A DNA stretch of 64,000 nucleotides from Cohaesibacter marisflavi. Lineage in GTDB: Bacteria; Pseudomonadota; Alphaproteobacteria; Rhizobiales; Cohaesibacteraceae. The stretch lies in contig NZ_FOVR01000006.1 in assembly GCF_900115225.1 (NCBI RefSeq), forward strand, positions 62,001 through 126,000, read 5' to 3'. Under the pieces are notes generated by a model. It saw only the letters and a list, made by a program, of their open reading frames with translations. It made no database searches and was not told the origin of the DNA. A program made the position numbers and the translations under genes. Shown piece by piece: positions 40,462-51,114 of the stretch; the first letter of the stretch is position 1, and every line of letters starts with the position of its first letter.

Positions 40462-40787
40462 TGATCAATTCCTTGATTATGCGTGTGTCTTTATATTTTG
40501 CAATCACCGCCCAACCTACCGCCTTTTAAATCGCCGGTATAGGGCAAGAGCGACGGTTATGCCCCCGACAACGAGGCATTGAAGGGAAAAGACAAGCTGG
40601 TCAACAGTGCCGCAACAGGAAGCTAAGTGTCTGAAATTTGCACAAAAGGCGTCGGAAGATGGCAGCGCGCATTCACTGCGATGAGCAGACTGAAAACACT
40701 GAATTGGTAAAAACTGTCCCACGCGCCCAATTTTCGTGGGGCATTTTCTTTGTAAGATATTGTATCTGCATAGATTTTAAAGGAGAG
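40462..40787. other. Gene-free stretch before the element boundary
   Basis: I see no gene. A hairpin CCCACG (40718-40723) / CGTGGG (40735-40740) followed by TTTTCTTT looks like a plus-strand terminator, but nothing recognisable ends at it. Confidence 0.45.
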
Positions 40788-40803
40788 TGGTGGGCCCGGA
40801 GGG
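40788..40803 (-). other. tRNA 3'-end fragment, probable attachment-site repeat (attR-like)
   Basis: On the minus strand these 16 bases read CCCTCCGGGCCCACCA, which is what the 3' strand of a tRNA T-stem and acceptor stem plus CCA looks like. The rest of the tRNA is absent because the sequence to the right is AT-rich. Integration into a tRNA 3' end by a tyrosine recombinase leaves exactly such a copy at the distal end of the element, with the intact tRNA at the other end, here predicted beyond 64 kb. The tRNA identity is not determined. Confidence 0.6.
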
Positions 40804-41148
40804 CTTTCAATAATTCTAGAATGATAAATATAATCAATTAGTTCATGGACCAACACACCGCAACAACTGGCCCAAATGATTCAATGGCTTATGAAAGATG
40901 TGGACCAGACTGCCTAGAAAATTCGAAGAAGTACGCAACGGACATTCGCCGCGCTTGCGAGATCTCTGGTGTAATCGGCGAAAGCGGCCTTTCAATCGAT
41001 CTATCTGTATTCAGCTCTATATTCTGATTGGAAGAAGCTAGATTGACTTCCATTTTGCCGTCCTCTCAAGGCTTGCAATGGATGGAACTCGGTGTTCAAA
41101 TTCATTTGGTAATTGCATGCTTATCGCGATAATTGGGGATCGATTGGG
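40804..41148. other. Short AT-rich stretch between the attachment-site fragment and the HNH gene
   Basis: A 60-codon frame (40845-41027) is open, but its protein has no recognisable features and no ribosome-binding site, so I do not call it a gene. No integrase or remnant was seen here. Confidence 0.4.
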
Positions 41149-42174
41149 ATGAAGCCAAGATTTAGCACAAAGACTATTCTCACACTTGCGCAGCGCGCCG
41201 CGTATCGTTGCTCTAATCCTGACTGCCGGAAACTGACTGTGGGTCCAAACTCGGAAGAAGACAAGGCCACTATCCTTGGTGAAGCAGCCCATATATTCGG
41301 TGCAAACTCAGGATCTGCAAGATTTGATCCGTCAATGAGTGAAAATTCTCGCGCCGCAATCACCAATGGAATTTGGCTCTGCGCCAATTGCCACACTATG
41401 GTTGACAAAGATGTGCAGGCCTATTCTGCTGCTCTACTATTCCGGTGGAGAGAAATCCATGATGACTTCGTGGCTTCAGAACTGAGCAGTATCAGCGATA
41501 AAATTCGATTTGAAGAACGTGCATCTGAATCCGAAAAGTTTTCAGGCTATCCACCAATTATACGCCGAATAGTCATGGATCGCCCTACAGCTTGGGAATG
41601 GTCATTGACCGCTGAGCTTCTCCGATATCTTACCGCCCCTCACATGCGAAAGCTCCGAGATGTACGTCAAGATTTGTACACACGACCGTTGCAACGAGTT
41701 CAATTGGACGATTTTATAGATTGGACCATGCAACAAACCTCACGAATACAAGGCTTCTTTTCTTCGCTTGCTGGCATTATGGAAAATCTCAACGAAGCTT
41801 GGGGCAAACCCGGAGAGCCTGGGGATCTTGAGGAAATTCATCACTCATGTTTATTAATAAATGACTTTTTTAAGCAGGCAGTCTTGTTCGAGGAGGAACT
41901 GAAGTTCATTCATGTTGATGAAGAATGCGTGCCGCTTCTCAATCTATTGAGGGGCATAATAGCCGCCCAAGCAGAAAAATTATTAGAGATCTCTGAAAGC
42001 CTAGATAAGGTAATTTTGCTGGTAGATACAGAGCATGAAGGTACTAAAGAGAAGCCATTAATTGTCACCCACAGCCTAGAATGCACGTTGCCAGATAATT
42101 GGTCCGAAAAGGTGAATGCCGAACTTGCACGCATCAGAAATATTGTTATGGAGCATCAACAGGAAGTCCTCTGA
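41149..42174 (+). CDS. HNH endonuclease domain protein with uncharacterised C-terminal region
   Basis: A 341-residue protein. The HNH/zinc-finger nuclease is N-terminal (about residues 15-105): CSNPDC (about 24-29) and CANC (about 80-83) flank GEAAHIFG, which supplies the invariant His, and NGIWLCANCHTMVDKD carries the final His and Asn. The other 230 residues are helical and do not match a domain I know. Many HNH proteins of this size act in defence against phage or are restriction-type nucleases. The ATG at 41149 has GGGGA about 10 nt upstream. It is the first gene of the cargo block on the plus strand and has lower GC than the flanking chromosome. Confidence 0.75.
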   Translation: MKPRFSTKTILTLAQRAAYRCSNPDCRKLTVGPNSEEDKATILGEAAHIFGANSGSARFDPSMSENSRAAITNGIWLCANCHTMVDKDVQAYSAALLFRWREIHDDFVASELSSISDKIRFEERASESEKFSGYPPIIRRIVMDRPTAWEWSLTAELLRYLTAPHMRKLRDVRQDLYTRPLQRVQLDDFIDWTMQQTSRIQGFFSSLAGIMENLNEAWGKPGEPGDLEEIHHSCLLINDFFKQAVLFEEELKFIHVDEECVPLLNLLRGIIAAQAEKLLEISESLDKVILLVDTEHEGTKEKPLIVTHSLECTLPDNWSEKVNAELARIRNIVMEHQQEVL

Positions 42175-42326
42175 AACTTAACAGTGTATTGTAAATTTTG
42201 CTTCACTGCTCTAACCGCTTCAAACGCCCATCAGCCGCATAATTTCTACATCTTGATCAGGCAAGCTCTCTCTTGCGTTTGAACTTGCTTGTTTCTATGC
42301 CGAGGACCATTACAGGAAATTGACGA

Positions 42327-42587
42327 ATGCTAGAACGCTCAAAACCTATTGCTGCGGCTATTTGGAAATGGTTTCGTAGCTATCCACTTTTCATCCAGCT
42401 TCTTTTGGTCATCCCCATCGTATGTGCCATGGCTCTCACACTTTTAGTCGGAAACATGGGGTTGGCTTTGATGGGCACCGCCGTCGCGATTAATTCGTTT
42501 GTTGCAGGTTGGATTGGTGGGTTTTTTGTTCTTGTTTTGGGTAAGGCTGGCATCATCATCGCCAAAGACCACAAAAAGAAGGACTGA
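42327..42587 (+). CDS. Small membrane protein of unknown function
   Basis: An 86-residue protein with two membrane segments (about 22-44, LLLVIPIVCAMALTLLVGNMGL, and about 52-74, AINSFVAGWIGGFFVLVLGKAG) and a positively charged C-terminal tail (KDHKKKD). It resembles no family I know. The position between two probable defence genes makes a membrane-acting accessory or effector conceivable, but that is only inference. The ATG at 42327 follows AGGAAATTGACGA. Confidence 0.5.
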   Translation: MLERSKPIAAAIWKWFRSYPLFIQLLLVIPIVCAMALTLLVGNMGLALMGTAVAINSFVAGWIGGFFVLVLGKAGIIIAKDHKKKD

Positions 42588-42739
42588 CGACTCTTTGTTA
42601 TGAGATGGCCCAATTCTGACGTTTCGCTGTTGTCACGAACCTTGAAGTGGCTTCCCCATTGCTGCCATTCCTTCAGTGTGCAGCATTTTGATACAGGGAA
42701 CTTCAGCAAGGCGGACGAAGCTGCCGTTCATTGCCATGC

Positions 42740-43597
42740 CTACAGATAGGCACTTTCATCGAATTTACCTTCTGCATCGAGGAATGTGTCGTCATTTGTG
42801 TCCAAATGTCTGAGAAGACCGAATTCTTCTATTAGCAACTTCATTTTCGACCCGCGCATCGACAATCCGTTAAGGAATATAAGTATTAGCTCATCATCAG
42901 ACAGCTGCGCCCTCAACAAATCAATGTACATTTCTTTCTTGTTGCTTTCTGAAAACTTCAGAAATTTTATAATATTGTACAGCAATCGGAAATAATGCCC
43001 CAAATCATTCCGAAATGACTTATAAATCTCTTCATATATTTCCTCAGAAGATATTCTAGTGTCTGGAATATTTTTGGAGGATGACATCTTACCCGCCTCT
43101 GCTTTCCTCTGTAAGAGTCGATCCTTTGCGATTTTGGGAGCTTTGTCTCCACGTCCTTTCACACGTAGTGCAAGAACGTGAAACACGTCTTTGCCAGTCG
43201 TTGTCACTTCGCCCTGACTGCTTAGGTCCATGTTGTTGACAACGTCCATCAACAGCGAAAGCATATTAAAGAATGTGCTCTCCACAGATTGCTCGGCTAG
43301 ATAGTTCTGTTGAGCAATCGTGAGGCTTTGCTGCTCCGAAAGAGTTTTTTGTGCTGTTTGTAATTCCTTCTGAGCAACTCCAACTTCTTGCTTTTGAAGC
43401 GTAATTGAAATTATCAATGCAACTAAAGCTGCGCCAGTAAATATAGAATTAGCTGCCCCAAACATATCTCCAAAAGTACCACGTGTCTCATTCTGTAAAG
43501 AAAACAGAGCTATAAGGTTTATTATCCAGATAATAGGAATTAGAGCGGACAGCAATATCGTCCAATTGGGAAGAGACGTACTAGGTTTTGAGCCCAT
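42740..43597 (-). CDS. Putative phage abortive infection protein (PutAbiC family)
   Basis: A 285-residue membrane-anchored protein matching the PutAbiC family (PF16872). Two membrane segments lie near the N-terminus (about 14-37, ILLSALIPIIWIINLIALFSL, and 45-68). The family block RGTFGDMFGAANSIFTGAALVALIISITLQKQEVGVAQKEL leads into a coiled coil (about 70-105). Then come VESTFFNMLSLLMDVVNNM and FRNDLGHYFRLLYNIIKFL, which are the strongly conserved parts. The family is thought to trigger host shutdown on infection, though evidence for most members is indirect. The frame opens at a TTG (43642); I prefer MGSKPSTSLPNW at 43597. The gene is single and unpaired. Confidence 0.78.
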   Translation of the reverse strand: MGSKPSTSLPNWTILLSALIPIIWIINLIALFSLQNETRGTFGDMFGAANSIFTGAALVALIISITLQKQEVGVAQKELQTAQKTLSEQQSLTIAQQNYLAEQSVESTFFNMLSLLMDVVNNMDLSSQGEVTTTGKDVFHVLALRVKGRGDKAPKIAKDRLLQRKAEAGKMSSSKNIPDTRISSEEIYEEIYKSFRNDLGHYFRLLYNIIKFLKFSESNKKEMYIDLLRAQLSDDELILIFLNGLSMRGSKMKLLIEEFGLLRHLDTNDDTFLDAEGKFDESAYL

Positions 43598-43828
43598 CTT
43601 TTGCACCACTTGGTTATCTTTTGGGGTTTGTGCACTCAGCAAAACGATTTAATTACCGAGAGACTGCAACGATTCTGACTTATACCATAAGAGCCTTATT
43701 GAGTTTGTCTCAAAGATTGCAATTTTTCATGTGCACCTTGGGCTCCAAGCAGACTGTTGCAACGCAAGATCATCTGGCTTTCTGTATTCAATTGAATTTA
43801 AGCAATTTTTACTAATATTCGGGACTCA

Positions 43829-44947
43829 TTATTTTGGCAAATATTGAGCGTTATTGTTTTCGTTCCTAGCAATGTCACCCAACCTTACAAAAGCGTTTTC
43901 GACACAATTGTCAGGAATCCTTGGCGTTCTGATGGCTAGGCGGCGTGCTGCGCCCCCCTTCATAAAACTACTTTTTGGAGGACGAACACAGCCTGCTCTC
44001 AGCAAGAAATCATTTAAATCAGCCATGGGGCCAAATATTGTTGGTGGATCGTCTGCGTAAAACCACGCGTGATCAAAAAAATCTTGATCTGCGCGAAGAC
44101 ATTTCCCCAAGCCCACTAGAGAAAAACAAAGAGAGGCACCAGAAATATTTATATAAGTTTTATCAATGTATGTGTTTTCTTTGATGTCAGCACCGAGGAG
44201 AAAACTAGACGTGAAGTCAATATTACCCATTTTTACACTACGAAATTTTGCATCTTGAAGGTCGCTATCGCTCCATTTGATATCAGTCAAAGTTCCACCA
44301 TTAAATACGGCTTGAGAGAAGCCTGTTCTACTGAGGTCTGAAAAATAAAGAGATAAATTATCAAATTTTGCATAATAGAACGAGTTGTCCGAGAAATTGG
44401 ACTCAGAAATAAACCAGTTTTCGTCTTTTGGTGCTTGTAAATGCAGATAATCAAAATTTGGAGGAGTCGTACAAACTCCTTTCTCGTCTATACGGTTGAT
44501 TGCACTACAGCTGAGATCGAGTCCAGATAATTTCCCTCCCACCAAATCCATAAGAGTGACTAGCGCATACCGTCGACCTGGTGCACTAGGAGATGGTGAT
44601 GCTAGAATCTGCCATGCAGCAATTGTCGTTTGTTCCTTTATATTTTCGCGCTGCACATCGAGTGCCATTCTTGCAAGGCGCGTCTGCTCATTTGCAGTTT
44701 TTAAGCTGGCAATTGCGAATGCCGTAGCGATAAGCCCAGCTAGAATTGTTAAGAATTCACCAATTCTTAGAACACTTCCCCACAATTTATGATCCCACCA
44801 TGGAGGATCTGGTTGTGGTGGGAGTTCAAGCTGCAATGATATAGGTGGTTGCCGCTTTGATATACCTGGTATTACTTTGCTACGCTTCGATTTTTTTTGC
44901 AAATGCCAGACGAATGTCTTTCTAATTTTTCTTTGCTCATTATTCAT
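43829..44947 (-). CDS. Pentapeptide-repeat protein with a membrane segment
   Basis: A 372-residue protein. The N-terminus is basic and proline-rich. One hydrophobic segment at about 68-92 (LTILAGLIATAFAIASLKT) should anchor it. Pentapeptide-repeat-like strings in the A(D/N)LxX style run from about 135 to 280 (SNFSDNSFYYAKFDNLSLYFSDLSRTGFSQAVFNGG, SDLQDAKFRSVKMGNIDF), which would form a right-handed quadrilateral helix. Such proteins can mimic DNA or scaffold complexes, and some occur in phage defence loci. The specific role is unknown. The ATG at 44947 gives MNNEQRKIRK. Confidence 0.72.
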   Translation of the reverse strand: MNNEQRKIRKTFVWHLQKKSKRSKVIPGISKRQPPISLQLELPPQPDPPWWDHKLWGSVLRIGEFLTILAGLIATAFAIASLKTANEQTRLARMALDVQRENIKEQTTIAAWQILASPSPSAPGRRYALVTLMDLVGGKLSGLDLSCSAINRIDEKGVCTTPPNFDYLHLQAPKDENWFISESNFSDNSFYYAKFDNLSLYFSDLSRTGFSQAVFNGGTLTDIKWSDSDLQDAKFRSVKMGNIDFTSSFLLGADIKENTYIDKTYINISGASLCFSLVGLGKCLRADQDFFDHAWFYADDPPTIFGPMADLNDFLLRAGCVRPPKSSFMKGGAARRLAIRTPRIPDNCVENAFVRLGDIARNENNNAQYLPK

Positions 44948-45627
44948 CGGTTTATTATTTCTTTATTTCCATGATTTAATTTCGATGTTTATATTTGAAA
45001 TGACATTCTCACCTAAATTAGAGCGTAGGCAGTATAGTCAAATAAGCGAGATATAAAAACCTTATTTTATCATCGATATTTGACAATATAACAACACCAT
45101 CATCAGGCTCTGGCTTTGCGAGCTCCCGCTGGGGTTTTCAAATTAACAAGCATAGACTCTGCAGGTTCCAGTGGGTCATTACGTAGATGCTGGCCAGCCA
45201 TAGCTAATATCCGAGATGGGCTCCTACCGGACTGGTGTGACGCACCATTAATAAGAAACAGTCATCCAGACGTGTGATTTACAATCAGCCCTTTGTAGAC
45301 CTTCGACTGACATCTGATATTGCAACGCAGTGTTCTTGGAGTTGGCATTTGTACAACTTGCCGCAAGGGAAGACAGCTATCTTATTGATAAAACGCTAAT
45401 AATTCACATTAAAAATAATTATTCAGCAAAAAAACACATACTTACAACCAGCGTCTGAGTTAGTTGAACTGAAAACCACCAATGATCTCTTCAAAACAAG
45501 CAAAGAAAGCCACATTGTCCAGTAGTCTATCACTCTGAGTAGACCTACTTTGAAGGCATTCGTGGAACTATTTCTCTCAACCAAAAAGCAAGTTAGAGCG
45601 TTTATCTTAGAAGATTGAGCACTATAC
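44948..45627. other. AT-rich gap of about 680 bp with a possible decayed frame
   Basis: No intact gene is seen. On the minus strand a 52-codon open stretch (45103-45261), ending in a Lys/Arg-rich tail, has a start ATG at 45201 and no recognisable domain; it could be the remnant of a larger gene. The rest is low-complexity AT-rich sequence with no repeats of note. Confidence 0.4.
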
Positions 45628-46245
45628 TTAAGTAGAAGAAATGACCATCGGCAATTGTGGAATGGGTGGACGACTTACAACGTGGCCTTGTTCTAACACA
45701 TAAATGCACTGTAATACCATTGATATGCCCATCATGCCCCAATTAAATAGCTTGAAAAGCTCCAATGCATCAGCATAAGTTGGCACACAAGGAACCCACC
45801 AATATTTAGAATTATCAAGATTGAGAGGGCCGCGAACCCTCCATTCCCTCTCGTGCATCCAATCGATTTTCTGATGCAACCTGCCCAATTTGGTATAGAC
45901 AATTCGGAAACGCTCGCTCTCGGGCCATATTTGAGCATCTCCTATATCTGTATAGATTGCAGGACGCCCTCCTCTTTCCCACAAATCATCCTTTGCAACA
46001 GCAATTCCAAAACCCGTCCGGCCATTTGGATTAGTCGCAACAAGTTGCAGCCAAAAGCAAGGCGGCACATCATAGAAAGAAGTTGCCCCGGCGGGATCAT
46101 ATCTTGTGACCCAGTCACTAATAGAAGCTTTGATCTGCCAGCTTTGGAGGATAGATTTCAGTTGATCACAGTTTCGAGTAAGGTGGATGAGAGCAGGAGA
46201 AATATCTCCGCGGCATTGAGCACGCTGATAGCTACCGAAATCCAT
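45628..46245 (-). CDS. AbiGi-like protein (abortive-infection-associated family, tentative)
   Basis: A 205-residue protein. The layout resembles the AbiGi/DUF2971 type: ISPALIHLTR at the start, a short SILQSWQIKAS region, then FYDVPPCFWL, a conserved GFGIAVAKDDLWERGGRPAIYTDI and EREWRVRGPLN near the end. This resembles AbiGi (PF10899), the antitoxin-like partner of the AbiG abortive infection system, but no AbiGii-like toxin is next to it. Sequence reading alone cannot separate it from DUF2971. The ATG at 46245 has AAGGA about 8 nt upstream. It is divergent from the SIR2 gene with about 260 bp between them. Confidence 0.45.
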   Translation of the reverse strand: MDFGSYQRAQCRGDISPALIHLTRNCDQLKSILQSWQIKASISDWVTRYDPAGATSFYDVPPCFWLQLVATNPNGRTGFGIAVAKDDLWERGGRPAIYTDIGDAQIWPESERFRIVYTKLGRLHQKIDWMHEREWRVRGPLNLDNSKYWWVPCVPTYADALELFKLFNWGMMGISMVLQCIYVLEQGHVVSRPPIPQLPMVISST

Positions 46246-46504
46246 CTCCTGTATTCCTTTCCAGCTTGTAGTTCTTTAGCTTTCCTGCACTCATGTTGAT
46301 GTGAATTACACAATCAGTGATTGACTATTTTACCTTCCAAGGCTCGATGTAATCGTCTCTATTTGAAAACATGTGCTCAAGTCTCGATTGAGCTTATGAT
46401 ATCCATAATCTCGAAAACAAAACCAATAAAAAGATTGCGGTTAAGCCTGTTTCAATGCAATTTATTGGTCAGGTGTAAAATTCACTCTCACACCCCCCAC
46501 AAAG

Positions 46505-48076
46505 ATGGTTCCCATGCAGACAGATCTCTACGAGCATCTATCAAAATTCGATTCCAGCCCAATTCTTTTCGTAGGCTCAGGATTCTCCCGACGCTATCTC
46601 GGGTTGGAAGATTGGTTCCATCTATTGGCAAAATTTTCAGAAGAGATTGGGCAAAACATCAACTACTACGTTTCATCGTCTAATGGTAGCTTGCCAGCCG
46701 CGGCATCTTTGCTCGCAATGGATTATCATAACACTTGGTGGAATGAAGATAAGTATTCCAATGCCAGAGAGCGTTATAGCGATGCATGTAAGGTGACCTC
46801 TTCGGCATTGAAGATCGAAATCGCTCGCTATATCAAAGAAATTTCTGAAACATCTCCCACAGATGAAACCCTACAGCACGAGCTTGAGCTACTCCAGAAA
46901 TCGTGCATAGACGGTATCATAACTACTAATTGGGATCTGATGCTTGAACGCTTATTCCCAGAATACAAAGTATTTATCGGGCAAGAGGGTGCTATATTCA
47001 ACAACTTTCAGGGTGTTGGCGAAATATTCAAGATACATGGCTGTTGCTCAGATCCTAACAGCCAGATTCTTACAGAAGAAGACTATAATTCTTTCGACAG
47101 TAAATACCCTTATCTCACATCTAAACTTCTCACATTTTTTGTAGAGCACCCTGTAATTTTCATTGGATACTCTCTAAGCGACACCAACATTGTTGATATT
47201 TTAAGAAGCATTGGGCAGTGCCTTTCAGGTGACAGCTTAGAGAAACTTCGAGACAGAATTATTGTCATCGATTGGAAACCTGAAGAAGAACCTACGTTTA
47301 GCGATGGGACCATAAAAATTGGGGAAACAACTGTACCTATAAAGACCATCCGAACAAACTCATTTATTCCAGTTTTTTCTGCCCTTGCATCCATAAAACG
47401 GCGTTTTCCAGCGAATGTTCTCAGAGAACTAAAAGAGTATGTGTTTGATCTAGTACGTACGAACGATCCAAAGGGGAATCTACTTGTTGCGGATATCGAT
47501 AGCACTAACACCCATGAAAATCTTGAGGTGGTTTTCGGGGTTGGCGCTATTACTAAATACCATGAGACCGGCTACAAAGGTTTGAACCGATATGATCTCT
47601 GTCGAGATCTGATCTTCGATAACGGTCGTTTCGATCCAGGACATGTCTTAAGTGTGACAATGCCAGACTTTCCTCCCGCATCATATTTCCCTGTATTTAA
47701 ATACTTGAGGGAGGCGGGAAGAATAATGGAAGACGGACGAATAAATACTGAAGAGCTGTGTGACAAGGTTATTCGAAGAGCCGCATACACTCAAAGAAAT
47801 TTTAATAATCCAGGCGCTGTTCGAAACGTTATTACACGCATGCCTGAATTTGAGCATGGTCTGACAGAGTTCTACGAGGCACACGGTTTCACGCAAGTTC
47901 TTGCGCACTCATCGAAACAAGACTTAACACCTGCAGATGCAAAGAATCTGAAATCAATCATCAGGCTTCATTTTGATGAACATGTTAAAAATGGCAAACT
48001 GCTTACGCCGCTGGCCAAAATTATTTGCCTCTATGACTGGCTGGACTACCGATATGCTATTGAGTTTGATCAATAG
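46505..48076 (+). CDS. SIR2 family protein, probable defence-associated NADase
   Basis: A 523-residue protein with an N-terminal SIR2 domain (about 1-280) and an unrecognised C-terminal half. NAD-binding motifs are visible: ILFVGSGFSRRY (GAG-type loop, about 20-31), IITTNWDLMLE (TNWD, about 140-150), FKIHGCCSD with the catalytic His (about 177-185), and VIFIGYSLSDTNIVDIL. Prokaryotic SIR2 defence proteins degrade NAD+ on phage infection. The C-terminal part (about 300-523) does not look like SLOG, APAZ or another partner I can name. The ATG at 46505 begins MVPMQTDL; the ATG at 46514 has a better-placed upstream purine run and could be the true start. It is a single gene in the cargo block. 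Confidence 0.78.
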   Translation: MVPMQTDLYEHLSKFDSSPILFVGSGFSRRYLGLEDWFHLLAKFSEEIGQNINYYVSSSNGSLPAAASLLAMDYHNTWWNEDKYSNARERYSDACKVTSSALKIEIARYIKEISETSPTDETLQHELELLQKSCIDGIITTNWDLMLERLFPEYKVFIGQEGAIFNNFQGVGEIFKIHGCCSDPNSQILTEEDYNSFDSKYPYLTSKLLTFFVEHPVIFIGYSLSDTNIVDILRSIGQCLSGDSLEKLRDRIIVIDWKPEEEPTFSDGTIKIGETTVPIKTIRTNSFIPVFSALASIKRRFPANVLRELKEYVFDLVRTNDPKGNLLVADIDSTNTHENLEVVFGVGAITKYHETGYKGLNRYDLCRDLIFDNGRFDPGHVLSVTMPDFPPASYFPVFKYLREAGRIMEDGRINTEELCDKVIRRAAYTQRNFNNPGAVRNVITRMPEFEHGLTEFYEAHGFTQVLAHSSKQDLTPADAKNLKSIIRLHFDEHVKNGKLLTPLAKIICLYDWLDYRYAIEFDQ

Positions 48077-48402
48077 TGACAGGTACCGCATTTCACCGAC
48101 ATCAACGGGATTAAACTTAGAACTCAGACTGTTCCAAATTTGATCTGGTCATAATGCCCGCTTCTGCAAAACTCCATCGAGCCATTACTGCACCGCAGCA
48201 TGTCTGCAATCCGCCCTTCCAACCAGATGGTCATTTCATCGACCCGAATGCCTCAATGGTCCGCTCATCCGGCCCGTATTCTTAGCTGAACACAGAAAGT
48301 GCTGCGCTGCGCCCAAATGACAGCGAAGAGCTAATTCTCGCGACTTGATCAATGATGTGAGTATCATTGCGCACAGCGTTACACAAAGCCAGCAAGGCAC
48401 AA
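48077..48402. other. Gene-free stretch between the SIR2 gene and the prophage lysis end
   Basis: No gene, repeat or promoter that I can support was found in these 326 bp. It may include the boundary between cargo and structural prophage genes. Confidence 0.45.
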
Positions 48403-48436
48403 AAAAAGCCCGCCGATATGAAATCGGCGGGCTTTT
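48403..48436 (-). terminator. Strong terminator at the end of the prophage late operon
   Basis: The 10-bp stem GCCCGCCGAT (48408-48417) / ATCGGCGGGC (48423-48432) has a 5-nt loop, followed on the minus strand by seven T residues. It lies immediately past the last lysis-module gene. Confidence 0.92.
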
Positions 48437-48439
48437 ATA

Positions 48440-48646
48440 CTATTTAGCAGCGGCATTAGCCTCTCGGAGCTGATTGCGCTTGATCCGCCAGTCCTGCCAT
48501 CTATTCAGGATCAACATGAACATGGCAACGATAGTGAAGATCAGCAGGACACCCTGCAAAACGGGATTGAAGTACTGATCCCAATAATACGCCATTCCAT
48601 TGACCCCCAATGCGGCAGCGACTTTTGTTTCCGACTGAGAGATCAT
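48440..48646 (-). CDS. Small membrane protein in the lysis module
   Basis: A 68-residue protein with one membrane segment (about 29-47, VLQGVLLIFTIVAMFMLIL) and a basic tail with a possible dimerising helix (RWQDWRIKRNQLREANAAAK). It starts at an ATGA overlap with the Rz1-like gene (48643-48646). It could be an antiholin or another lysis regulator; nothing identifies it further. Confidence 0.6.
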   Translation of the reverse strand: MISQSETKVAAALGVNGMAYYWDQYFNPVLQGVLLIFTIVAMFMLILNRWQDWRIKRNQLREANAAAK

Positions 48647-48921
48647 TGGCCAGCCCTTAAGCGAGCACCACGAACCTTCTTATAGAATTGCACAGCATCG
48701 CGGTGACGATTGCGACATTCAGCCAAGGATTGACGATGACGAGCGATCACCGCCCGGGCGTCCCGACCGCTCTGGACGCCCGGATCCGCGCACTGGCGTT
48801 GCAGATCGGCAGGCATAGGCGGCAAATAGTCCGCCCCGACCGCCTCACCGAATGTCTTGCAACCGGCTAACGTCATCATCAGTAAGGATGCAAGCATCAG
48901 CCTGACCAAGTTGCGCCTCAT
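48643..48921 (-). CDS. Rz1-like o-spanin lipoprotein
   Basis: A 92-residue lipoprotein with signal MRRNLVRLMLASLLMMTLAGC, whose lipobox LAGC (residues 18-21) puts Cys21 as the first residue of the mature protein. The mature chain is short, with proline-containing (YLPPMPADL) and basic segments. It overlaps the Rz-like gene by 77 bp in another frame, as in lambda-type Rz/Rz1. O-spanins sit in the outer membrane and, with the inner-membrane partner, disrupt it at lysis. Confidence 0.8.
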   Translation of the reverse strand: MRRNLVRLMLASLLMMTLAGCKTFGEAVGADYLPPMPADLQRQCADPGVQSGRDARAVIARHRQSLAECRNRHRDAVQFYKKVRGARLRAGQ

Positions 48922-49189
48922 AGTCTTTTACCTTCTGCTCAAGGTTTGATTGTTCAGCCTCACGGGTTTGCGCGCGTATAACGGCATTTTCCAAGGCCTC
49001 GGCATTGATTTTGATGGATCGGGTCAGGCTCTTGATATGGCCATCCTTGAGATCGATCTGCACTTTTTGTGCCTCGATCTGGGCAATTCTGAATTGATCC
49101 AGACGCCCTTTGCCATAGGCAGCGCACACGACTAGGAGGAAAGCCACGGCAAACCACACCCGCCGATCCGTTAAAAACGACAGCCACAT
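48845..49189 (-). CDS. Rz-like i-spanin
   Basis: A 114-residue inner-membrane protein with one N-terminal membrane segment (about 9-24, RVWFAVAFLLVVCAAY) and a long coiled-coil periplasmic helix (about 34-95). This is the architecture of an i-spanin. The end of the gene overlaps the Rz1-like o-spanin, and the start lies just after the holin stop. It is the third gene of the lysis cassette. Confidence 0.8.
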   Translation of the reverse strand: MWLSFLTDRRVWFAVAFLLVVCAAYGKGRLDQFRIAQIEAQKVQIDLKDGHIKSLTRSIKINAEALENAVIRAQTREAEQSNLEQKVKDYEAQLGQADACILTDDDVSRLQDIR

Positions 49190-49191
49190 AA

Positions 49192-49512
49192 TCAGTCACC
49201 CGCCTCCATTCGCCCCGGATCCGGCGGAAAGAAACCGTCAGCGCCGTGACGCTTTTCCCACGAGCGGCCAATGGTATGAGCGCCAGTCACTGCACCACCG
49301 GTGCCTATCATCACAATCAGGAGATTTGAGGCATCATCGAGCTGAGCCTGCCCCACGGCCAGCAAGAGCAGGACCGTCAGCGCCAACGCAGCAAAGAAGA
49401 GAATAAAGACCAAGGCAAAAAGAGGACGCCAGAGACGCCGCAATTGCCAAGCATGGACATAGGCGGGGTCTGGCAAGAGATAGCCCTTGGTGTTTGGCAC
49501 ATTGTCTCTCAT
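49192..49512 (-). CDS. Putative holin
   Basis: A 106-residue membrane protein with two hydrophobic segments (about 31-53, LFALVFILFFAALALTVLLLLAV, and about 63-80, NLLIVMIGTGGAVTGAHTI) and a charged C-terminus. It overlaps the endolysin stop by ATGA (49509-49512) and precedes the spanin genes. Position, size and membrane segments fit a class II holin; the sequence itself does not identify a holin family. Confidence 0.7.
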   Translation of the reverse strand: MRDNVPNTKGYLLPDPAYVHAWQLRRLWRPLFALVFILFFAALALTVLLLLAVGQAQLDDASNLLIVMIGTGGAVTGAHTIGRSWEKRHGADGFFPPDPGRMEAGD

Positions 49513-50216
49513 CGCGTTACCCCATAGCCAGAGGATGGACGCGTCCCTGCAAAAGACGCATAGATCTTGCCTTCCTCAGAAGGTGGCACGCGGAAGGCTA
49601 TGAAGTGACGAATATGGAAACTGTCATAGCCGATCCGGTCTTTCTGATTGCAGCCCAACAGGGTGACCATGCCGGTCTTGCGATCATAATTGGCAACAAC
49701 CCCGATATGACCAGCCTTTGCGCTCCAGCGGATAACCCCGAATGATCCGATCAACGGCCCACCAGCATCAACGCCATAAGAACGCCAGTTTTGAGCAAAG
49801 AACGGGTTTGAAGGAACCGGCTCCGATGGGAACATTTCCAGTGCAGCATTCTCGGCCCCCTCACCACACCAAGGAAGCTGTTTAGGGTTGCCCAGCATCT
49901 TGCCAAAGGCTCGAAACCAATGCATCAGATCAAGCGTATTGCGGCCCTCATGCCAGCCAAGGCGCTGGATAAGAGGCCGAGCAAGAGGCGGAATGTCCAG
50001 CTCCACGCCCTTTGCATTGGTCTTGGCCTCAAACAGCATGCGCAAAGTGATCGGGCCAACCTTATCGCGAGGGTTGAGGTTGACCGATTTTTTAAAGGCG
50101 ATGATCGCCGCCGAGGTCATTGGACCCGGCAAGCCATCAATAGGCCCCGGATCGAAGCCCAAAGCCTTGAGCCTGACTTGCACGCGCCTGAGTTGCTCGG
50201 TTGAAAGGTTTCTCAT
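49509..50216 (-). CDS. Endolysin: peptidoglycan-binding domain plus TIGR02594/CHAP-like domain
   Basis: A 235-residue protein. The N-terminal 70 residues form a PG_binding_1 domain (RVQVRLKALGFDPGPIDGLPGPMTSAAIIAFKK). The C-terminal domain resembles the TIGR02594 family of NlpC/P60-CHAP amidases or endopeptidases: PWCGEGAENAALE gives the catalytic Cys (Cys in WCGE) and GHIGVVANYDR the catalytic His. It digests the cell wall at the end of the phage cycle. The ATG at 50216 has AGGA about 8 nt upstream. The holin follows by a 4-bp overlap. Confidence 0.85.
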   Translation of the reverse strand: MRNLSTEQLRRVQVRLKALGFDPGPIDGLPGPMTSAAIIAFKKSVNLNPRDKVGPITLRMLFEAKTNAKGVELDIPPLARPLIQRLGWHEGRNTLDLMHWFRAFGKMLGNPKQLPWCGEGAENAALEMFPSEPVPSNPFFAQNWRSYGVDAGGPLIGSFGVIRWSAKAGHIGVVANYDRKTGMVTLLGCNQKDRIGYDSFHIRHFIAFRVPPSEEGKIYASFAGTRPSSGYGVTR

Positions 50217-50493: not shown

Positions 50494-50676
50494 ATGGAAA
50501 GAAACTCAAGTAAGATCATCAAGAGGCTAAGGTCTGAAGGGTTTGAACTAATTAGTATTTCTGGTTCACACCACAAACTAAAAAAGGGAGACAGGATTGT
50601 GATCGTTCCTCACCCCAAGAAAGACCTCCCAACAGGGACAGCCCGAAAGATAGCAAAAATGGCAGGGTGGCTTTAG
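50494..50676 (+). CDS. hicA: HicA toxin (mRNA interferase)
   Basis: A 60-residue protein of the dsRNA-binding-like HicA fold, which cleaves mRNA. Family motif LRSEGFELISISGSHHKLKK has the catalytic His in GSHHKL (about residue 26). The C-terminus VIVPHPKKDLPTGTARKIAKMAGW is typical. Length matches the family. An AGGA ribosome-binding site precedes the ATG. It is followed 39 bp later by hicB. The pair is read on the plus strand, opposite to the surrounding phage genes. Confidence 0.92.
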   Translation: MERNSSKIIKRLRSEGFELISISGSHHKLKKGDRIVIVPHPKKDLPTGTARKIAKMAGWL

Positions 50677-50715
50677 CGCCACCCTTTCCACCGCCAACAT
50701 AACAGAGGATACAAC

Positions 50716-51114
50716 ATGGATTATTATATCGCAGAAATCGAAAAAGATCCTGATAGCACCTATGGGGTGAGCTTTCCCCAGTTGGAAACTGTGTTTTCTG
50801 CGGGCGATAGCTTGGATGAAGCAGCAAGAAACGCTGCTGAAGCCTTGAGGCTCTACTTTGAGGACAATCCAACCGAGCGTCCCGTGCCATGGACTATGGC
50901 TGAAGTAGTTGCGATACCCGATGTGCAAGAAGACATTCACAATGGAGCTGTCTTGGTGGTGATCCCGTACATCGAAATGACAGGCCGTAGCGTACGCGCC
51001 AACCTGACCTTTGATGCAGGCTTGCTCGCCGCCATCGATCAAGACGCCAGCAACAAAAACATCACACGCGCTGCATGGTTAGCATCCGCCGCGCGAACCA
51101 TGCTTGCAGGATGA
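50716..51114 (+). CDS. hicB: HicB antitoxin with ribbon-helix-helix DNA-binding domain
   Basis: A 132-residue antitoxin. The N-terminal HicB fold covers about residues 1-75 (YYIAEIEKDPDSTYGVSFPQLETVFSAGDSLDEAARNAAEALRLYFED), and a C-terminal Arc-type ribbon-helix-helix domain begins near SVRANLTFDAGLLAAIDQDASNKNITRAAWLASAAR (about 95-130). It neutralises HicA and likely represses the operon through the inverted repeat at 50427-50471. Ribosome binding is by GAGG upstream of the ATG. A terminator follows it within 10 bp. Confidence 0.92.
   Translation: MDYYIAEIEKDPDSTYGVSFPQLETVFSAGDSLDEAARNAAEALRLYFEDNPTERPVPWTMAEVVAIPDVQEDIHNGAVLVVIPYIEMTGRSVRANLTFDAGLLAAIDQDASNKNITRAAWLASAARTMLAG

What the first reader, a model, noticed from the sequence alone, without database searches (positions are those of the whole stretch)
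40788..48076. Cargo block of probable anti-phage genes next to the attachment end of a P2-like prophage
Between a tRNA-like 3' fragment and the prophage lysis genes lie an HNH protein, a PutAbiC-family protein, a pentapeptide-repeat membrane protein, an AbiGi-like protein and a SIR2 protein, with visibly lower GC than the chromosome. None is a structural or replication gene. Established knowledge: P2-like prophages carry variable defence genes. The proteins are mostly unlinked single genes, so they might be separate systems or an undescribed multi-gene one.
Basis: partly seen in the sequence, partly recalled or inferred. Interest (0 to 1): 0.75.

Follow-up and report, generated by a model that had tools for sequence, protein, structure and literature searches.

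The report
Swappable defence cargo at prophage end
A dormant virus in a bacterial chromosome carries, at one end, a swappable set of unrelated genes that look like defences against rival viruses, and one of them belongs to a poorly understood family that is predicted to have the shape of an enzyme known for tagging viral DNA.

Summary
A ~44-kb prophage sits at tRNA-Met(CAT): a 17-bp copy of the tRNA 3' end lies at 40787-40803, the intact tRNA beyond the integrase. Between it and the lysis genes lie 7.6 kb at 43% GC (flanks 54%) with the five named genes plus a small membrane ORF. In three same-genus genomes with this lysis cassette, similarity stops at 48.27-48.39k; the slot is nearly empty, holds one different gene, or holds other genes. 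So it is a cargo slot. No fetched relative carries two cargo families: probably solo genes, not one system. SIR2 is PADLOC candidate PDC-S25 with DSR2's catalytic Asn/His; homologues sit beside integrases in Gram-positive phages. Most informative: the 205-aa gene is homologous to AbiGi (profile E 5.5e-18) and DUF2971; two family models match ADP-ribosyltransferases first, DarT on top (PDB ranks 1-25 and 1-5), though no match reaches E<0.001. No DarG-like partner was found. 'P2-like' fits the tail only. Protection is untested. A known kind of hotspot, with a new, testable reading of AbiGi as a solo ADP-ribosyltransferase.

The parts
40787..40803 (.). attachment-site core: 17-bp copy of the 3' end of tRNA-Met(CAT), cargo-side end of the prophage
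   Evidence: exact repeat with L003:810-826, next to intact tRNA-Met and integrase
41149..42174 (+). HNH-domain protein, 341 aa (353 from an upstream TTG), C-terminal two thirds without known family
   Evidence: PF13391 E 4e-4 (sub-cut-off), PADLOC PDC-M68A E 1e-27 residues 16-135, PDB 9om4 HNH endonuclease E 2.6e-9
42327..42587 (+). 86-aa membrane ORF (possible gene, unassigned)
   Evidence: hydrophobic over residues 15-80; no family match better than E 0.038
42740..43642 (-). putAbiC-family protein, 300 aa, two N-terminal membrane segments
   Evidence: PF16872 E 3e-21, PADLOC AbiP 2e-9 and AbiC 9e-9, phrog_8999 E 4e-23; hydrophobic 23-51 and 60-84
43829..44947 (-). pentapeptide-repeat protein, 372 aa, one N-terminal membrane segment
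   Evidence: PF13599 E 1.3e-7 residues 181-245, PF00805 over cut-off; hydrophobic 59-85
45628..46245 (-). 205-aa AbiGi/DUF2971-superfamily protein with predicted DarT-like ADP-ribosyltransferase fold
   Evidence: profile comparisons, AlphaFold models and Foldseek, invariant R12, D14, H21, P61, R94, Y98
46505..48076 (+). stand-alone SIR2-domain protein, 523 aa, PADLOC candidate PDC-S25
   Evidence: E 2.5e-164; N142/H178 align with DSR2 N133/H171
48404..48436 (.). hairpin followed by T-rich bases (terminator-like) near the cargo/lysis boundary
   Evidence: 14-pair stem; nucleotide similarity to three related prophages ends at 48392, 48391 and 48267
48440..50216 (-). lysis cassette (small membrane proteins, spanin-like, endolysin) that bounds the cargo

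Best explanation
The block is the cargo slot of a temperate tailed phage, between its lysis cassette and one attachment end. Cargo there differs while the lysis genes stay the same (shown in three relatives). The present load is a set of independent, solo, defence-like genes rather than one system (supported). Most likely they protect the lysogen, and so the prophage, from other phages (inferred): SIR2 by NAD+ depletion when its C-terminal part senses an infecting phage; HNH by nucleic-acid cleavage; putAbiC and the pentapeptide protein as membrane-anchored abortive-infection effectors; and the 205-aa AbiGi-like protein as an ADP-ribosyltransferase with a DarT-like fold that uses NAD+ to modify a nucleic acid or protein during infection. 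For the last, homology to AbiGi/DUF2971 is shown, the fold is predicted twice, catalysis and target are inferred.
For: Slot: similarity at 85.7-95.3% identity over the lysis genes ends at 48.27-48.39k in 3 of 3 relatives; beyond it lie about 1.0 kb with a 94-aa ORF, 1.4 kb with one 198-aa gene, or other genes (1406-aa protein with weak AAA_16 match, 382 aa, SEC-C protein; outer end not delimited). GC drop. Solo genes: of 230 non-own loci 110 hold one cargo family and none holds two; 0 of 80 AbiGi-like loci hold another; phage SIR2 homologues lie between endolysin and integrase (BK5-T) or beside the integrase (Javan227, SVep1). SIR2 Asn/His invariant in 5 of 5. Fold: window model pLDDT 84.3, pTM 0.82, PDB ranks 1-25 all ADP-ribosyltransferases, DarT first; second member L125, just over Pfam's AbiGi cut-off, pLDDT 89.7, pTM 0.86, ranks 1-5 DarT and Arr (best: DarT with NAD analogue and ssDNA, probability 0.99), 6 the NatRT complex, 7 tankyrase. 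The H...Y...E triad guess was written down before folding.
Against: No gene was assayed. No Foldseek match reaches E<0.001 (best 0.15 and 0.0051; TM 0.40 and 0.49), no unrelated model was run as a control, and DarT profiles do not align significantly with the family (prob 3.4 and 0.9). The HEREW motif's invariance is partly imposed by the scan pattern. Only three related lysis loci were available, at more than one chromosomal site. Relatives of HNH, pentapeptide and putAbiC were few and mostly partial, so the co-occurrence test has little power for them. The pentapeptide protein has no PADLOC hit.
Confidence: 0.65

Rival explanations
1. The genes form one undescribed multi-gene defence system.
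For: They lie together in one slot; HNH, SIR2 and membrane effectors do occur in multi-gene systems (recalled; PADLOC lists such models).
Against: No relative carries any two of the families (0 of 230 loci; 0 of 80); genes point in both directions with a 680-bp gap; in three phages the SIR2 homologue has no cargo relative beside it.
Confidence: 0.07
2. Two sub-pairs are real: putAbiC with the pentapeptide protein (both minus strand, both membrane-anchored, 186 bp apart) and/or HNH with the 86-aa membrane ORF (both plus strand), each a two-gene system; the rest is solo.
For: Strand, spacing and similar membrane-anchor architecture.
Against: Three class genomes hold both a putAbiC and a pentapeptide match, but on different contigs (G242, G355, G369); the 86-aa ORF has no match better than E 0.038 in the family libraries.
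Confidence: 0.15
3. The AbiGi-like protein is not an enzyme: a degenerate ADP-ribosyltransferase fold used for binding, or an antitoxin as Pfam's AbiGi label says.
For: Pfam names AbiGi an antitoxin; fold matches are remote; AbiGi, expressed alone in E. coli, was not toxic in one study (PMC3985639, passages).
Against: R12, D14, H21, P61, R94, Y98 invariant in 53 of 53 diverse sequences; ExE[W/Y/F/I]R in 15 of 20 DUF2971 ORFs, 0.41 expected in shuffles (the Pfam profile covers that region); no partner family in more than 2 of 141 neighbours.
Confidence: 0.3
4. The block is ordinary lysogenic-conversion or stray DNA without a defence role.
For: No assays; weak or partial matches for HNH and pentapeptide genes; swapping alone does not prove defence; three of six ORFs have no PADLOC match at E<0.01.
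Against: Three of six ORFs hit PADLOC models at E<1e-8 and a fourth is AbiGi-homologous; one relative's slot also holds a SEC-C/Mrr-like and an AAA-like protein.
Confidence: 0.17

Closest known systems
[quoted passage not shown] second P2 locus with fun, Vassallo 2022, PMC9519451; passages read)
   Same: Swappable defence cargo at a fixed place in a temperate phage with a contractile tail.
   Different: P2's slots lie next to cos between the replication and portal genes, or at fun; here the slot lies between lysis genes and the attachment end, in a phage with a lambda-type head whose nearest named relative by terminase infects a rhizobium.
AbiGi (PF10899) and DUF2971 (PF11185)
   Same: Profile homology over most of the domain: AbiGi E 5.5e-18, DUF2971 E 3.2e-7, each for one comparison; shared motifs.
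   Different: Not detected by either Pfam model on its own; no AbiGii-type family among the cargo ORFs.
DarT (PF14487), toxin of DarTG
   Same: Top structural match of both family models, beside other ADP-ribosyltransferases; similar size; Glu-bearing strand in the C-terminal part.
   Different: No significant sequence-profile match; no macrodomain antitoxin found beside it.
PDC-S25 (PADLOC candidate), DSR2, KomC, ThsA SIR2 domains
   Same: Full-length match to PDC-S25; SIR2 domain with the catalytic Asn/His of DSR2.
   Different: 523 aa; the PDB matches cover the SIR2 domain only, DSR2 has 1005 aa; no partner gene recognised.
putAbiC (PF16872), lactococcal AbiC/AbiP
   Same: C-terminal putAbiC domain over Pfam cut-off, N-terminal membrane anchor.
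   Different: PADLOC AbiC/AbiP matches are partial and weak.
Rhizobium phage vB_RleM_PPF1
   Same: Closest terminase among 50,697 phage records, 49% identity.
   Different: No nucleotide match to the cargo or lysis region in that collection.

Membership tests
Prophage defence hotspot | fixed position in the phage with variable cargo between relatives | tested here: met
   3 of 3 related lysis loci, different content
Prophage defence hotspot | cargo protects against phages | not testable with these tools
   no assay possible
P2-like phage | P2-type contractile tail module | tested here: met
   sheath phrog_23, tape measure phrog_28, baseplate phrog_6, tail protein phrog_52; that these are P2-type is recalled
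P2-like phage | P2-type head and packaging genes | tested here: not met
   GpA-type terminase PF05876/PF20454 and phrog_15, portal phrog_21, fused protease-capsid phrog_4523; that P2 uses other types is recalled
AbiGi (PF10899) | sequence over Pfam cut-off | tested here: not met
   no hit at E<=1 for the window protein; relative L125 is just over it, 22.5 against 22.4 bits
AbiGi (PF10899) | homology by profile comparison | tested here: met
   99.0% probability, E 5.5e-18, 128 columns, against ORFs of 3 of 4 loci over the AbiGi cut-off; ORFs were picked by a loose motif, L247 gave none, and L246 carries the full HEREWR motif and bridges the families
AbiG system | paired AbiGii gene | tested here: not met
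   no such family among cargo ORFs
DUF2971 (PF11185) | homology by profile comparison | tested here: met
   93.1% probability, E 3.2e-7, 123 columns, 20 ORFs of 23 loci
DarTG | ADP-ribosyltransferase fold close to DarT | tested here: inconclusive
   DarT ranks first twice, only ADP-ribosyltransferases in PDB ranks 1-25 and 1-5, but best E 0.15 and 0.0051
DarTG | DarT family by sequence profile | tested here: not met
   probabilities 3.4 and 0.9 against 6 ORFs of 9 loci
DarTG | DarG macrodomain partner | tested here: not met
   none among cargo ORFs; no Pfam family in more than 2 of 141 neighbours of relatives, and none of those seen twice is a macrodomain
ADP-ribosyltransferase | NAD+-dependent ADP-ribosylation | not testable with these tools
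   needs purified protein
PDC-S25 | full-length match to the PADLOC model | tested here: met
   E 2.5e-164, residues 4-516, model 8-515 of 517
DSR2 | about 1000-aa architecture matching the Dsr2 model | tested here: not met
   NCBIfam Dsr2 15.6 bits against a cut-off of 1400
putAbiC (PF16872) | domain over Pfam cut-off | tested here: met
   76.2 against 22 bits

The most novel reading that the evidence does not exclude
AbiGi, DUF2971 and the prophage gene here form one large, widely scattered superfamily of stand-alone ADP-ribosyltransferases with a DarT-like fold that act in abortive infection without a macrodomain antitoxin; AbiGi would then be the enzyme of AbiG rather than, as Pfam labels it, an antitoxin.
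Probability: 0.45. Interest if true: 0.68.

Novelty: new variant of a known kind. Interest (0 to 1): 0.52.

Why it matters
It shows a cargo slot at the lysis/attachment end of a temperate phage group, where swapping can be followed between closely related prophages. More generally, a fold prediction for the AbiGi/DUF2971 superfamily (160 relatives found by one motif scan) gives a concrete enzymatic hypothesis and candidate residues for an abortive-infection family described in 1996 (reference list seen), for whose biochemical activity I found no account in the passages read.

Tried and rejected
Looked for close relatives of four cargo proteins (SIR2, 205-aa, pentapeptide, HNH) in 2.9 million viral contigs: none confirmed. 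Looked for the block in 50,697 phage records by DNA: no match. Considered the pentapeptide protein as a Hailong HalA effector: only a repeat-region match, E 0.08, 12 bits against a cut-off of 250; a paper search gave 98 papers, none of the 6 listed relevant; dropped. Considered the HNH gene as PDC-M68A: only its N-terminal third matches; not filed. Considered the 86-aa ORF as a CBASS 2TM effector: E 0.07; dropped. Considered conserved partners of the AbiGi-like gene: a crude ORF caller gave 151 immediate neighbours in 80 loci; one was dropped by the script and nine by hand, 141 were scanned; no Pfam family occurs in more than 2. Only the first 25 of 122 Pfam and of 249 PADLOC families are shown; they mix defence-like ones (GajB models in two, Mrr_cat two, DUF2357 two; XhoI, SAVED, nSTAND3, AbiTii one each) with housekeeping ones; there was no control set, so no enrichment is claimed. 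A first extraction of DUF2971/DarT ORFs ignored strand and was discarded, then redone. Literature: DUF2971 1 paper, unrelated by its listing; PDC-S25, putAbiC, PDC-M68 0 papers; AbiGi 13 papers; AbiG with ADP-ribosyl and abortive infection 6 papers. Of these I read passages of PMC3985639, PMC3710099 and PMC4012209, listings of the rest; none that I saw assigns this fold. Passages only of PMC9122126, PMC9519451, PMC11514479 and PMC9503650; listings only for the rest.


Full report
1. The element. The window is G000:C24:62001-126000 of an unnamed 5.34-Mb genome. A 17-bp exact repeat links window 40787-40803 with L003:810-826, about 44 kb apart. The second copy is the 3' end of an intact tRNA-Met(CAT) (L003:811-887), just beyond a tyrosine integrase that ends at L003:735. 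Between the two lie tail, baseplate, head, packaging and replication genes. By PHROGs the tail is of the P2 kind (sheath, tape measure, baseplate), but terminase, portal and the fused protease-capsid are of the lambda kind (the naming of kinds is recalled). The closest terminase in 50,697 phage records is that of Rhizobium phage vB_RleM_PPF1, 49%; the cargo and lysis region has no nucleotide match there.

2. The cargo. From 40804 to 48391 GC is 0.427, against 0.541 for the host part and 0.539 for the phage part of the window. Genes in order: HNH protein (+), 86-aa membrane ORF (+), putAbiC (-), pentapeptide protein with membrane anchor (-), 205-aa protein (-), SIR2 protein (+). Family matches are: HNH, putAbiC and SIR2 hit PADLOC models at E<1e-8; the other three do not. 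A 14-pair hairpin at 48404-48436 lies between SIR2 and the lysis genes; in the block as a whole, promoter-like (6, shuffles 15.4) and terminator-like sites (4, shuffles 6.2) are not more frequent than in shuffles.

3. Swapped cargo. An endolysin search in 101 genomes gave three close same-genus matches besides the own one (90-95% identity). The loci share the lysis genes at 85.7-95.3% and similarity ends at window 48392 (G013), 48391 (G008) and 48267 (G012). Beyond it: G013 has one 198-aa gene, then tRNA-Met; G008 has a 94-aa ORF within about 1 kb, then tRNA-Met; G012 has a 1406-aa protein with a weak AAA_16 match (below cut-off), a 382-aa protein, an IS110-like transposase (by eye), a 158-aa protein and a SEC-C protein with a sub-cut-off Mrr match; its outer end was not found. 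In G008 the terminase (96%) lies near the end of one contig and the lysis genes near the end of another; I infer one split prophage, so a closely related phage with an almost empty slot. In G013 and G008 the tRNA-Met has other host neighbours than in the window, so the chromosomal site differs.

4. One system or several? tblastn of six cargo proteins (E<=1e-5) against 230 fetched non-own loci finds one family in 110 (85 AbiGi-like, 9 HNH, 9 SIR2, 4 pentapeptide, 3 putAbiC) and two in none; most loci carry only 1.5-6 kb of flank, so distant linkage would be missed, and power is low for the rarer families. SIR2: 9 of 101 genomes match, own included; only G073 matches over most of the protein (residues 9-407, 43%), the rest over part of the SIR2 domain region. 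In G073 the gene lies beyond phage-like and metal-resistance-like genes (by eye). In 8 phage records it is found at 25-41% identity: in BK5-T between endolysin and integrase, in Javan227 and SVep1 beside the integrase. putAbiC: 5 of 289 class genomes, own included, and 1 phage record, a gene of an inovirus. HNH: 8 of 289, own included, the others only over the N-terminal third; 279 plasmid records match, none over 80% of the protein. Pentapeptide: 18 of 289, own included, the others over the repeat region and its surroundings. The cargo is therefore best read as independent solo genes.

5. SIR2. N142 and H178 are invariant in five diverse members and align with N133 and H171 of DSR2; H171A is a mutant in deposited structures. 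Active NAD+ cleavage is inferred. No paper in the library names PDC-S25.

6. The 205-aa protein. It has no hit on its own in the family libraries, and only chance-level PDB matches. tblastn finds 5 plasmid records at E<=0.01, one annotated DUF2971. A six-sequence alignment was used for one scan of genome contigs: 192 stretches matched the motif, 160 encode relatives, 80 were kept, from many phyla by their titles. In relatives of the host the family is absent apart from a weak partial match (2 of 101 genomes including the own). In 53 sequences R12, D14, H21, P61, R94 and Y98 are invariant; DWxHEREWR is too, but the scan pattern selected for most of it. Before folding I noted H...Y...E as a possible ADP-ribosyltransferase triad (the triad is recalled knowledge). 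The window model (pLDDT 84.3, pTM 0.82) gives 64 PDB matches at E<=10; ranks 1-25 are all ADP-ribosyltransferases, DarT first (E 0.15, TM 0.40), the rest pertussis, cholera and heat-labile toxin chains, many of them copies of one another. Among viral models DarT is rank 9 and an ADP-ribosyltransferase rank 14; the better ranks are uncharacterised or unnamed. An independent member, L125 (pLDDT 89.7, pTM 0.86), over the AbiGi cut-off by 0.1 bit, gives DarT at ranks 1-3 (best E 0.0051, probability 0.99, TM 0.49), Arr at 4-5, the NatRT complex at 6 (NatT is a related NAD+-using toxin, recalled; the chain's identity is not shown) and tankyrase at 7; rank 8 is unrelated. No match reaches 0.001 in either search, and no unrelated model was run as a control.

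7. Kinship. hhalign, E for one comparison: family against ORFs of 3 of 4 loci over the AbiGi cut-off 99.0%, E 5.5e-18; against 20 DUF2971 ORFs (of 23 loci) 93.1%, E 3.2e-7; against 6 DarT ORFs (of 9 loci) 3.4%, not significant; against SIR2 as control 0.5%. With the second alignment: 98.5, 89.7, 0.9 and 0.3%. The AbiGi ORFs were picked by a loose motif (H, then E[WFY]R), which gave none for L247, so the presence of ExE in 3 of 3 of them is no independent test. ExE followed by W, Y, F or I and R occurs in 15 of 20 DUF2971 ORFs, 0.41 expected in shuffles; the Pfam profile covers this region, so this too is not fully independent. In the window model E134 begins strand 134-138; the catalytic Glu of DarT is similarly placed (recalled). 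In relatives no Pfam family is found in more than 2 of 141 neighbours.

8. Mechanism. Best reading: NAD+-dependent ADP-ribosylation during infection. With no antitoxin found, either the protein is autoinhibited or its target appears only on infection; this is inference. AbiGi alone was not toxic in E. coli in one study (PMC3985639, passages), which fits either an infection-triggered enzyme or a non-enzyme.

9. Verdict. The hotspot is a known kind of thing in a new place (compare PMC9122126 and PMC9519451, passages). The fold assignment for AbiGi/DUF2971 is the part worth testing.

Noticed in passing
window 50494-51114 (+): A HicA toxin / HicB antitoxin pair (Pfam E 1.1e-16 and 1.1e-20) between the endolysin and a tail gene, on the opposite strand; DNA similarity is interrupted here in G013 and G008 but not G012, so it may be a second variable slot. 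G013 has a different 236-aa ORF there.
   Followed up: partly
L079:5085-14646: G012's genes in the same slot: 1406-aa protein with weak AAA_16 match, 382-aa protein, 158-aa protein, SEC-C/Mrr-like protein; PADLOC matches only weak (PDC-S57 E 0.007) or confined to the SEC-C motif (E about 1e-5). Possible undescribed defence genes.
   Followed up: partly
L077:10159-10755: 198-aa cargo gene of G013, HEPN-like by eye only; no Pfam or PADLOC hit.
   Followed up: partly
L200:4007-5617 (phage BK5-T ORF30): Gene annotated as hypothetical between endolysin and integrase of a lactococcal phage, related to the window's SIR2 protein (26% identity).
   Followed up: partly
L203:2887-3735: putAbiC relative in a Vibrio filamentous phage.
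   Followed up: no
window 44948-45627: 680 bp without an ORF of 60 aa or more between the pentapeptide and 205-aa genes; possibly remnants of older cargo.
   Followed up: no
G000:C19:102818-104476: A second GpA-type terminase (32% identity) suggests another prophage in the same genome.
   Followed up: no
L084:5549-15568: In G073 the SIR2 relative lies beyond phage-like genes and a copper-resistance-like gene block, by eye.
   Followed up: no
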